From a virus, in IMG/VR virus record IMGVR_UViG_3300026518_000046, positions 1-28,903 of that record: a stretch of 28,903 bases of DNA; one strand, given 5' to 3'. This document shows, piece after piece, positions 1 through 28,903 of the stretch. The notes below the pieces were generated by a model that did no database searches, was not told where the DNA came from, and was given only the letters and a program-made list of their open reading frames with translations. Position 1 is the first letter of the stretch, and each line of letters opens with the position of its first letter. Both the position numbers and the translations under genes were made by a program.

Positions 1-107
1 TGATATATAAAACAATCAATATTATTTTTAATTTCTTCATATGTTGTTATTTCATTATTTTCAACACTTCTATATATTTTTATAGTCAAATTTTTTACAG
101 GAATCAT
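1..107 (-). CDS. head closure / head-tail connector protein, N-terminal part (continues at 28681-28903)
   Basis: The start codon is at 105-107 and the frame is open to base 1 (MIPVKNLTIKIYRSVENN...). Joining base 1 to base 28903 keeps the frame and yields a protein of about 109 residues ending IIRGVKQYDNIIDQHTECIL...KDE. The small size and the C-terminal pattern of an alternating beta region with a conserved R-V-K-x-Y-D stretch resemble the small head closure proteins that follow the head-tail adaptor in siphovirus head modules. It lies 6 bases downstream of the adaptor gene and just before an HK97 gp10-like gene, which is the usual place. Function is inferred mainly from order and length. 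Confidence 0.7.
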   Translation of the reverse strand, partial: MIPVKNLTIKIYRSVENNEITTYEEIKNNIDCFIY

Positions 108-5419: not shown

Positions 5420-5522
5420 TAATAGGTATTATTATTTATTATGTATACCCCTTACAGGAGCCCCCTTACAGGAGCCCCATAAGGGTAATACCCATGAAAT
5501 GGCTTTAATTAACTATTTATTA
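5420..5522. repeat. GC-rich boundary element A
   Basis: Left flank 5420-5449, 35-bp core 5450-5484 and right flank 5485-5522. The core contains two direct copies of CCTTACAGGAGCC in tandem and ends in CCTTA ... TAAGG inverted arms. Flanks match element B in direct orientation while the core is inverted. It sits between the end of the RusA-terminase operon and the promoter of the portal operon. Repeat of AAAGCC arms (GGCTTTAATT / AATTAAAAGCC) follows at 5500-5534. Confidence 0.88.
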
Positions 5523-6013
5523 AAATTAAAAGCCTTATTTCAAAAAATTCTAACTAATATAAAACTATTATATATTATAAAACTATAATATAACAATATT
5601 AAACTTACTAAAATATACCTAATAGGGTATAAAATAATATTTAAATTTATTTTTTCTAAATCTTTTATTTTTTTTGATAATCAAATTAAAGAATATTTTA
5701 ATAATCAAATATCAGCATTTAATTTATCTTCTTTATCTCAACCTACAAAATAAAAAATATCATGCCATTCATACTTAACTCAATCTAATAAATTAGTAAT
5801 AATTTTAATTATATTTTTAGAAAAATATGAAGGACCTATTCAATTGATTATTCATAATTCTTTTAATCTATCAAAATTTGCCTCTATAAAGTCTTTATTT
5901 TGTGTTAGGATAGAATATACCTCATTTATATCTTCTATATTATATAATCCATTTTGTTGGCATTTATCAATAAATTCATTTATTGATATTTCATTCATTT
6001 GTTTAATATACAT
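5513..6013 (-). CDS. unknown protein with phospholipase-A2-like HD...GG...AD signature and a membrane segment
   Basis: 166 residues, stop TAG. The middle has GPSYFSKNIIKII followed by EWHDIFYFVGGDKEDKLNADIGLL (about 82-105). The spacing H-D-x-x-Y-x-x-G-G...A-D is seen in small phospholipase-A2-like bacterial proteins; this resemblance is by eye only. Residues about 125-155 form one strongly hydrophobic helix (IRYILVSLILLYYSFII), then a short basic tail. It closes the RusA-terminase operon, 23 bases after the terminase gene, and its stop sits in the conserved flank of the GC-rich element at 5420-5522. A second possible start lies at 5996-5998. Function unknown; a host-envelope role is a guess. 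Confidence 0.7.
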
Positions 6014-7461: not shown

Positions 7462-7857
7462 TTAATTAGTTAATTCTTCTAATTCAAATTCTATAAATTC
7501 TTCTCATTTTTTTACTTTTTCTTTTTCAGATGTTTGTTTATATATTTTATTATCATTAAATCATAAATATTCAGCTAAAACATCTTGAAAAAGCTTATTT
7601 GAGTTATCTACATCACTACCTATATTAGAAACTCATATTTTTTTAATTAAATGTAATTTAATTTTTTTATTTCAAAAATCTATTCAATTATAAATGTCTT
7701 TTATATTATTTATTATAAAAAAACTCATTAAATCTTTTTTTAACTGTTTTGCTTCTTTACTTAAAAACATTCAGCATTTTTTACCTTTTTTTGTAAATAT
7801 AGGTCATATTTTATAAGTAGCATTTAAAGAAATTGATTTTAAAGGTATTTTTATCAT
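7462..7857 (-). CDS. rusA: RusA-family Holliday junction resolvase
   Basis: 131 residues, the usual RusA length. SISLNATYK near the N-terminus corresponds to the family's S-x-N-x-x-Y, and YLT-like MFLSKEAKQLKKDL follows. The acidic active-site set appears as GSDVDNSNKLFQDVLAEYLGFNDNKIY (D82, D84-N85, K88, D92, and D102 by my count), then K-rich strand ending in acidic EFIEFELEEL. RusA enzymes cut four-way junctions as dimers and in phages often clear branches before packaging, which fits its place directly ahead of the large terminase gene. A TTGATT-N16-TATTAT promoter lies upstream (7883-7910). Confidence 0.82.
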
Positions 7858-7910: not shown

Positions 7911-7927
7911 ATAATTTTATAAAAAAC

Positions 7928-7955
7928 TTGAAAAAAAATAAAAAATTATTATATA
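7928..7955 (+). promoter_or_regulatory. promoter of the tRNA cluster
   Basis: TTGAAA at 7928-7933 and TATATA at 7950-7955, 16-base spacer, the same ACTTGAAAAAAAA context as the minus-strand promoters. It is the only one of the family seen on the plus strand and lies about 70 bases before the first tRNA. Confidence 0.7.
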
Positions 7956-8026
7956 TGATAATATCAGAATGAGGTAAAATGTCTTTTCTTTAATGTCTTC
8001 CATCGATAATATTATTATAAATATAT

Positions 8027-8101
8027 GGGGTAGCATGCCAATGGAGGCTAATCTCTCTTGCACAGAGATTGTGGTGGGTTCGATTCCCATCTATTCCACC
8101 A
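8027..8101 (+). tRNA. tRNA-Ala (anticodon UGC)
   Basis: The acceptor stem GGGGTAG pairs with CTATTCC, including the G3-U70 wobble that marks alanine tRNAs. The anticodon stem TCTCT/AGAGA encloses loop CTTGCAC with anticodon TGC at the centre. The T arm GTGGG-TTCGATT-CCCAT is regular and the 3' CCA is encoded. The D stem is short (GCC/GGC). It reads GCA, a codon well used by this phage. Confidence 0.92.
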
Positions 8102-8115
8102 TTATATTTTAATAT

Positions 8116-8190
8116 GCTCCCATAGTTCAATGGTTAGAACAAATGCCTTGTAAGCATTAAATTTCAGTTCAATTCTGAATGGGAGCTCCA
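8116..8190 (+). tRNA. tRNA-Thr (anticodon UGU)
   Basis: Perfect acceptor stem GCTCCCA/TGGGAGC, discriminator T, encoded CCA. The anticodon stem AATGC/GCATT carries loop CTTGTAA with anticodon TGT, which reads ACA. The D arm (AGTTCAATGGTTAGAAC) and the TTCAATT loop of the T arm are normal. Confidence 0.93.
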
Positions 8191-8196
8191 TTATAT

Positions 8197-8272
8197 CAGA
8201 GTATAGCTCAATTGGTAGAGCACTCGGTTTGGAACCGAGGGGTTGTAAGTTCAAGTCTTACTATTCTGACCA
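8197..8272 (+). tRNA. tRNA-Pro (anticodon UGG)
   Basis: Acceptor stem CAGAGTA/TATTCTG with the C1-G72 pair typical of bacterial proline tRNA, discriminator A, encoded CCA. The anticodon stem CTCGG/CCGAG holds loop TTTGGAA with anticodon TGG, reading CCA. D arm AGCTCAATTGGTAGAGC and T arm with TTCAAGT are regular. Confidence 0.93.
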
Positions 8273-8281
8273 TTAACTATT

Positions 8282-8312
8282 AAAAAAAAAACCTACATTT
8301 AGTAGGTTTTTT
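8282..8312. terminator. bidirectional intrinsic terminator between tRNAs and amidase gene
   Basis: Stem AAAAAACCTAC / GTAGGTTTTTT (11 bp) with loop ATTTA. On the plus strand it ends the tRNA transcript 10 bases after the proline tRNA; on the minus strand it directly follows the amidase stop codon. Both strands have a U-run on the 3' side. Confidence 0.88.
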
Positions 8313-20995: not shown

Positions 20996-21072
20996 GTAAG
21001 AAATAATTAAGTTTTATTTTAAGTGCTATATCTTCTTATATAGTATAAAATGTGTTTTTAATTATTTCTTAC
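20996..21072. repeat. 15-bp perfect inverted repeat at the start of the ERF transcript
   Basis: GTAAGAAATAATTAA at 20996-21010 pairs with TTAATTATTTCTTAC at 21058-21072; a smaller hairpin (CTATA-TCTTCT-TATAG) lies inside. The predicted transcription start of the promoter at 21077-21104 falls at the outer edge, so the mRNA would begin with this stem. A near copy lies at 24165-24237. Confidence 0.75.
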
Positions 21073-21076
21073 TTAT

Positions 21077-21104
21077 ATAATAAGAATTAAATCTTTTTTT
21101 TCAA
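21077..21104 (-). promoter_or_regulatory. early promoter, array unit 1
   Basis: TTGAAA 21099-21104, TATTAT 21077-21082, 16-base spacer. Bracketed by CTTACTT and AAGTAAG in inverted orientation, an operator-like arrangement. Confidence 0.75.
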
Positions 21105-21189
21105 GTAAGATATTTAAATTTTTATAATTTCTACTTTTCTTATATATTATTAGTAGTTATAAAATATTTTTAATACTTTACTTATGTAT

Positions 21190-21217
21190 ATAATAAGAAT
21201 TAAATCTTTTTTTTCAA
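21190..21217 (-). promoter_or_regulatory. early promoter, array unit 2
   Basis: TTGAAA 21212-21217, TATTAT 21190-21195, 16-base spacer identical in sequence to unit 1 (AAAAAGATTTAATTCT). Confidence 0.72.
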
Positions 21218-21295
21218 GTATGATATTTAAGTTTTTCCTAAGTATTATATTTTATTATATAATGTAGAAATGTTTTAAATATCTTACTTGTATAT

Positions 21296-21323
21296 ATAAT
21301 AATAATTTTAAATTTTTTCTCAA
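21296..21323 (-). promoter_or_regulatory. early promoter, array unit 3
   Basis: TTGAGA 21318-21323, TATTAT 21296-21301, 16-base spacer. Flanked by TTACTTG/CAAGTAA. Its leader carries a near-perfect inverted repeat (AAGTAAGATATTTAA against TTAAATATCATACTT) whose 3' arm runs into the -35 of unit 2. It overlaps the end of the gene at 21343 only by proximity (20 bases). Confidence 0.68.
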
Positions 21324-21342
21324 GTAAAGAATTTAAGTTTTT

Positions 21343-21525
21343 TTAATCAATATCTTGTGTATAAATTCAATTAGCTTCAATTCCATTTTTTATTAGTTTG
21401 ATGTCAATTCAATCTATAATATCTTTTATTAGTTGTTCTTTTATTGTGTTATTTTTTATTAGGATATTATTATCTAATAAAGCTTTTTCTATAATAGCTT
21501 CTGTTTCTTCTATTGTTAATTCCAT
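21343..21525 (-). CDS. small unknown protein
   Basis: 60 residues: MELTIEETEAIIEKALLDNNILIKNNTIKEQLIKDIIDGIDIKLIKNGIEANGIYTQDID. Acidic helical start. No family recognised. It follows the replication initiator gene by 22 bases and ends right at the promoter array. Confidence 0.65.
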
Positions 21526-24164: not shown

Positions 24165-24237
24165 AAGAAATAATTAAATTGTATTTTAAGGATTATATTT
24201 TCTTATATAATATAAAATAATGTTTTATTTATTTCTT
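24165..24237. repeat. inverted repeat leader of the helicase transcript
   Basis: AAGAAATAATTAAA at 24165-24178 against TTTATTTATTTCTT at 24224-24237 (13 of 14 pairs), with a small inner stem ATTATA/TATAAT. Same architecture and related sequence as 20996-21072. Confidence 0.7.
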
Positions 24238-24243
24238 AGTTAT

Positions 24244-24271
24244 ATAATAAGAATTATATATTTTTTTTCAA
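24244..24271 (-). promoter_or_regulatory. early promoter of the helicase operon
   Basis: TTGAAA 24266-24271, TATTAT 24244-24249, 16-base spacer. The -10 and downstream sequence match array unit 1 at 21077. Confidence 0.75.
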
Positions 24272-24353
24272 ACAAACAATTTAACTTTTTATAATTTCTA
24301 TTATTTTGCTTTTTATTGCTAATAGTTATAAAATAATAATTGTTTATATTTTA

Positions 24354-24381: not shown

Positions 24382-24428
24382 ACAAAGAATTCATAAAAAT
24401 AAAAGCCATACATATATATGACTTTTCT

Positions 24429-24531
24429 TAATAAGTATTATTATTGATTATGTATACCTATTATGGGGCTCCTATGAGGGGGCTCCTGTAAGGGGTATAA
24501 CCATATAATGGCTTTATTTAGCTATTTAATA
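24429..24531. repeat. GC-rich boundary element B
   Basis: Left flank 24429-24458, 35-bp core 24459-24493 with two GGGGCTCCT blocks, right flank 24494-24531. The flanks match element A (5420-5522) in direct orientation at 28/30 and 30/38 bases; the core matches the reverse complement of A's core at 31/35. The stop codon of the gene at 24518 lies in the right flank. The core and its TATACC/GGTATA arms can fold. Confidence 0.88.
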
Positions 24532-24892
24532 TTGCCTGAATTTCAGTATATGCATTTAATGCCTTAATTTGAGTTTCACTTCTTTGATCCTCTGGTATAT
24601 CTAAAACATATTTTGCTAATACTCCTGCCATTAAATTTATTTGATCTGTTATAGAAGCTATTTTTATAATTTCTTCTCTTTTTTGTATTTTTCAAGTTAA
24701 TATTTGATATTCAATAGAATTTTGTGATAATAAATCAGTTGTTCAATCTGTATATTTTATATTTACATACGAATTATCAGGAGATAAATTCATATTTTCA
24801 ACAATTTTATTTGTATCAATATTATCTTTTAATATAATATCTTTATTTTCTGTTGTATTTATTAAAATATCTATATTTTTATATGTTTCCAT
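24518..24892 (-). CDS. unknown protein following the fibre gene
   Basis: 124 residues: METYKNIDILINTTENKDIIL ... VNIKYTDGTTDLLSQNSIEYQILTGKIQKREEIIKIASITDQINLMAGVLAKYVLDI ... AILNS. Mixed N-terminus and helical C-terminus. No family recognised. It is the last gene of the structural operon, 18 bases after the fibre gene, which suggests a fibre chaperone or cap, but no evidence beyond position. Stop lies in the flank of element B. Confidence 0.7.
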
Positions 24893-28688: not shown

Positions 28689-28903
28689 CTTTATTTTTAA
28701 TTAAAATACATTCTGTATGCTGATCTATAATATTATCATATTGTTTTACTCATCTTATTATATATTCTTCATTATTATTATCAATTATTTTATCTCATAA
28801 TAATATATCTTCTTTATCTAATAATAATTTATATCATTGATATGCAGGTATATCATCATTTCATATAATAACATCTTCTGATAATGGATATATAAAACAA
28901 TCA
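28681..28903 (-). CDS. head closure protein, C-terminal part (continues from 1-107)
   Basis: Open frame to the window end, ending at a TAA at 28681-28683. Reads FIYPLSEDVIIGNDDIPAYQGYKLLLDKEDILLGDKIIDNNNEEYIIRGVKQYDNIIDQHTECILIKNKDE after the join. The first four residues (DCFIY) repeat at the very start of the window, so the two termini may overlap by one copy of an 18-base unit or the gene may truly carry a tandem 6-residue duplication. The pattern 'd-x-I-x-x-x-x-x-x-Y-x-I-x-x-V' suits a small head closure protein. Confidence 0.7.

What the first reader, a model, noticed from the sequence alone, without database searches (positions are those of the whole stretch)
5420..5522. Two boundary elements with the same flanks but a 35-bp core inverted between them
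Elements A (5420-5522) and B (24429-24531) align over about 100 bases. Left flanks agree at 28 of 30 bases and right flanks at 30 of 38, both in direct orientation. The GC-rich 35-bp cores match only when one is reverse-complemented (31 of 35). The cores hold tandem GGAGCCCC blocks and end in CCTTA...TAAGG. This is what would remain if the core flips by recombination between short inverted arms, or through hairpin loop exchange in replication. Each lies at the 3' end of an operon just before the next promoter. They are by far the most GC-rich stretches in an AT-rich genome. I know of no named element like this.
Basis: partly seen in the sequence, partly recalled or inferred. Interest (0 to 1): 0.85.

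Follow-up and report, generated by a model that had tools for sequence, protein, structure and literature searches.

The report
Repeated phage hairpin with flipped core
A small, AT-rich phage of glycine-recoding CPR bacteria carries two copies of a 103-base intergenic hairpin element at the ends of two gene clusters; in one copy the GC-rich centre is turned around, most likely by a copying slip between short inverted arms, and its function is unknown.

Summary
Elements A (5420-5522) and B (24429-24531) match at 76/103 positions directly, and at 91/103 once a 33-bp core is inverted. Core identity is 31/33 inverted against at most 17/33 direct. Flanks match at 28/30 and 30/38; random 30-mer pairs from the genome never exceeded 27/30. 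Similarity stops sharply at both ends. A scan of 89 sequences (1.39 Mb: this phage and relatives) for direct flanks with an inverted core found only this pair.

The genome is a circularly closing 28.9-kb phage that reads TGA as Gly. About 20 code-25 relatives (35-47% TerL identity) lack the element, as do all collections searched.

The best reading is a duplicated 3'-end hairpin that suffered a hairpin-mediated microinversion, as in plastid 3' spacers. I found no invertase or integrase, and the core is too short for site-specific looping. The tandem GGGGCUCC blocks form a G.U-dependent hairpin on one strand only, so the flip puts the strong hairpin on the gene strand at A and the antisense strand at B. 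B alone is followed by a candidate intrinsic terminator. The two sense 3' UTRs become mutually complementary. Whether the flip is functional, neutral or ongoing cannot be decided from one genome.

The parts
5420..5522 (.). Element A, 103 bp; its right end contains the stop codon of the 5513-6013 gene (minus strand)
   Evidence: Alignment with B, sharp similarity borders
24429..24531 (.). Element B, 103 bp; its right end contains the stop codon of the 24518-24892 gene (minus strand)
   Evidence: Alignment with A, sharp similarity borders
5450..5482 (+). Core of A: two tandem 14-bp units CTTACAGGAGCCCC plus ATAA; GGGGCUCC strand = minus (gene strand)
   Evidence: 31/33 to reverse complement of B core; RNA -33.6 kcal/mol, z -2.9 on minus, z -1.3 on plus
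24461..24493 (-). Core of B, inverted relative to A; GGGGCUCC strand = plus (antisense to all protein genes)
   Evidence: RNA -35.1 kcal/mol, z -3.35 on plus, z -0.74 on minus
5444..5491 (-). Hairpin formed by GGGGCUCC repeats and arms UAUUACCCUUA/UAAGGGGUAUA
24452..24499 (+). Same hairpin on the opposite strand, arms UAUACCUAUUA/UAAGGGGUAUA
24401..24426 (-). Candidate intrinsic terminator directly downstream of B (AAAAGTCATATATATGTATGGCTTTT then ATTTTTAT); none after A
   Evidence: Only such structure on the minus strand under my criteria; 0-2 per simulated genome
5369..5396 (-). Promoter-like site TTGAAA-16-TATAAT of the portal gene, next downstream of A
   Evidence: 11 of 12 consensus matches; part of a recurring CTTGAAAAAA motif
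24244..24271 (-). Promoter-like site TTGAAA-16-TATTAT upstream of the DnaB-like helicase gene, downstream of B
5513..6013 (-). Gene ending in A, 166 aa, no family; lies between TerL and portal, absent there in relatives
24518..24892 (-). Gene ending in B, 124 aa, no family

Best explanation
A and B are two copies of one 103-bp non-coding element placed directly after the stop codons of two gene clusters. After duplication, the 33-48-bp GC-rich centre of one copy was inverted by a hairpin-mediated microinversion: the nascent strand switched template between short inverted arms (TATACCCCTTA / TAAGGG(G)TATA) during replication or annealing, leaving the outer flanks collinear. Functionally the element most likely acts at the RNA level as a 3'-end hairpin that protects or processes the upstream transcript, or insulates it from the next promoter. 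At A the strong G.U-containing hairpin is on the gene strand. At B the flip moved it to the other strand, and a separate candidate terminator follows. Shown: two copies, inversion, position, strand-specific folding. Inferred: template switching, and the RNA 3'-end role (which I hold at only about 0.35).
For: Inversion model 91/103 against 76/103; core 31/33 inverted against at most 17/33 direct, flanks far above chance; unique in 1.39 Mb. Inverted arms lie at the core borders. Both elements begin at a stop codon and precede a promoter-like site. Hairpin z -2.9 and -3.35 on the GGGGCUCC strand only; these are the two strongest intergenic hairpins of the genome. All 18 consensus pairs hold in both copies, and the 6 differences fall mostly in unpaired positions (p 0.01-0.05, biased because the fold comes from the same sequences). 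Precedents: template switching inverts spacers between short inverted repeats with arms over 9 bp (PMC8604942); 17-33-nt microinversions flanked by inverted repeats (PMC8755829); inverted 25-27-bp loops in the plastid trnH-psbA hairpin (PMC2903610). The phage encodes an ERF-type annealing protein.
Against: The arms are imperfect (one or two mismatches), which PMC8755829 considers hard for pure template switching; break-induced copying is the alternative. Only one genome is available, so direction, age and frequency of the flip are unknown. If the sense hairpin were essential, B should not have lost it. Neither element has a U-run, so classical termination is not supported. No relative carries the element, so function by conservation cannot be tested.
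Confidence: 0.5

Rival explanations
1. Orientation-indifferent DNA site: the tandem 14-bp units are binding sites for a phage or host protein (replication, partition, packaging or boundary function), so core orientation does not matter.
For: Two near-exact 14-bp tandem units in both copies; B precedes the replication module and A the head module; a ParB-N-domain protein is encoded.
Against: Outer flanks are as conserved as the core and hold no such units; only two sites; no known motif.
Confidence: 0.15
2. The opposite orientation is selected: the two sense 3' UTRs are antisense to each other and pair in trans, coordinating the two transcription units.
For: Predicted duplex of the sense RNAs -86 to -89.5 kcal/mol against -33.6 and -16.9 folded alone; 43/48 positions complementary.
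Against: Any inverted duplicate has this property; A RNA is locked in a strong hairpin; no expression data.
Confidence: 0.1
3. The GC-rich core is a mobile GC cluster that inserted independently, in opposite orientation, into two copies of the same flanking sequence.
For: Core 60% GC in a 20% GC genome; borders sharp.
Against: No empty flank pair elsewhere in the genome above background, no target duplication, no other core copy here or in any collection; arms are shared between core and flank.
Confidence: 0.1
4. Active site-specific inversion switch (inverton) flipped by a phage or host recombinase.
For: Direct flanks with inverted core are the expected snapshot.
Against: No invertase, integrase or transposase family above cut-off among the 34 proteins scanned; segment of 33-48 bp too short to loop (argument in PMC8755829); no promoter or gene in the core.
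Confidence: 0.07
5. Assembly artefact at a shared inverted repeat.
For: Metagenomic contig; A and B share an exact stretch of 22-23 bases in inverted orientation, near common k-mer sizes.
Against: The copies differ at several core positions; a misjoin would exchange everything downstream, yet both outer flanks are collinear and head genes are syntenic with relatives.
Confidence: 0.04

Closest known systems
Hairpin-associated small inversions in plastid non-coding DNA (trnH-psbA spacer; Kelchner and Wendel 1996, cited in PMC2903610)
   Same: Hairpin in a non-coding spacer, 25-35-bp centre inverted between short inverted repeats, collinear flanks; hairpin suspected to act in mRNA stability
   Different: Seen there between orthologues of individuals or species; here between two copies in one phage genome. 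The trnH-psbA stems are at least 18 bp; here arms are short and imperfect, and the inner hairpin depends on G.U pairs and changes strand with the flip
Template-switch spacer inversion / quasipalindrome events (PMC8604942, PMC8755829)
   Same: Short, partly imperfect inverted arms flank a precisely inverted spacer
   Different: Documented mostly in yeast and apes; spacer here is at the long end (33 bp or more) and not shown to be recent
Invertons
   Same: Segment inverted between inverted repeats
   Different: No recombinase found, no promoter, segment too short
Intrinsic terminators
   Same: GC-rich hairpin right after a stop codon
   Different: No U-run after the stem in either element on either strand
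REP/BIME, MITE and mitochondrial GC-cluster type dispersed palindromes
   Same: Short, dispersed, GC-rich, hairpin-forming intergenic repeats, opposite orientations
   Different: Only two copies, conserved non-palindromic flanks, no terminal repeats or target duplications, no transposase (comparison from general knowledge)

Membership tests
Hairpin-associated microinversion (plastid type) | Inverted segment flanked by inverted repeats, outer flanks collinear | tested here: met
Hairpin-associated microinversion (plastid type) | Non-coding position near a gene's 3' end | tested here: met
Hairpin-associated microinversion (plastid type) | Both orientations seen at the same site among relatives | tested here: inconclusive
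   No relative with the element found; only the two copies within this genome differ
Inverton / site-specific inversion | Recombinase gene in the element or genome | tested here: not met
   No such family (a host enzyme is not excluded)
Inverton / site-specific inversion | Both orientations present in reads | not testable with these tools
   No reads available
Intrinsic terminator | GC-rich stem followed by a U-run | tested here: not met
   Neither element; a separate candidate lies at 24401-24426
Known RNA family | Match to an Rfam model | tested here: not met
   Only tRNA genes, plus one sub-threshold antisense hit to a tRNA
MITE / transposable repeat | Terminal inverted repeats, target duplications, multiple copies | tested here: not met
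   Two copies only; no duplication visible at the borders

The most novel reading that the evidence does not exclude
The core is a selected two-state strand switch: by lying in opposite orientations, the paired elements make the 3' UTRs of two phage transcription units mutually antisense (or set which strand carries a strong G.U hairpin), regulating head and replication modules in a phage of glycine-recoding CPR bacteria.
Probability: 0.1. Interest if true: 0.75.

Novelty: new variant of a known kind. Interest (0 to 1): 0.4.

Why it matters
If confirmed, it would be a hairpin-mediated microinversion preserved between two copies in one phage genome. It would also show that such flips need not be neutral, because a G.U-dependent hairpin is strand-specific and the flip makes two 3' UTRs antisense to each other. 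It also gives a tractable marker for replication-slip or annealing recombination in phages of uncultivated CPR bacteria. As it stands it is a well-documented curiosity without demonstrated function.

Tried and rejected
Exact DNA patterns for core and flanks in IMG/VR gave only chance hits: L003 (unrelated phage, inside a coding sequence) and L104 (61% GC contig). In bacterial genomes the single hit, L007 (Bacillus spacer just downstream of a gene's stop codon), fits the few hits expected by chance. blastn against phages and plasmids found nothing. Single-protein searches with TerL and MCP found no close relative; a TGA-aware TerL motif and a TerL alignment did. Element search in relatives by blastn, genome search and covariance model was negative. 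Terminator, inverton, MITE and Rfam explanations were tested and rejected.

Full report
What the sequence is. The window is a whole virus record of 28,903 bases. Its two ends share the 17-mer GATATATAAAACAATCA, and a reading frame continues across the join, so the genome probably closes as a circle. TGA is read as glycine: the Walker A motifs of TerL (ARGHGKTT) and of the DnaB-like helicase (GGTTGTGKST) use TGA at their glycines, and TGA outnumbers GGN 414 to 107. That code is known from Absconditabacteria and Gracilibacteria and their phages (PMC10746230). All protein genes recognised here lie on the minus strand.

Noticed in passing
window 1-28903: TGA is the main glycine codon (414 of 521 glycines), so standard-code ORF lists are misleading; phage of Absconditabacteria/Gracilibacteria type.
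   Followed up: yes
window 1-18 and 28886-28903: 17-base end overlap and a reading frame crossing the join: the record is probably a complete circular genome although its completeness is not given.
   Followed up: partly
window 7927-8312 (+): tRNA-Ala(TGC), tRNA-Thr(TGT) and tRNA-Pro(TGG) lie on the strand opposite to all protein genes, with their own promoter motif and a good terminator.
   Followed up: partly
window minus 22527, 21218, 21105, 17482, 5397, 3342; plus 7927: Recurring promoter-like motif CTTGAAAAAA(AA) at likely transcription-unit starts; similar TTTCAAG sites occur in relative G004.
   Followed up: partly
window 20998-21357 and 24165-24305: Repeated promoter-region block (three tandem copies plus a distant copy at 84%) ahead of replication genes.
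   Followed up: no
window 7462-7857: Motif SDVDNSNKLFQD...FNDNKIY looks like a RusA-type junction resolvase (my reading; no Pfam RusA hit), which could act on cruciforms.
   Followed up: no
window 5513-6013: 166-aa protein with GPSYFSK...HDIFYFVGGDKEDKLNAD, reminiscent of phospholipase A2-like HD..Y..GG motifs (from memory); absent between TerL and portal in relatives.
   Followed up: no
L019 9721, L034 14052 and 12222: Relatives have other GC-rich, near-perfect hairpins in intergenic regions, unrelated in sequence to A and B.
   Followed up: no
window 24401-24426 and 24510-24518: AAAGCCAT/ATGGCTTT inverted repeat encloses element B and could compete with the downstream terminator stem.
   Followed up: no
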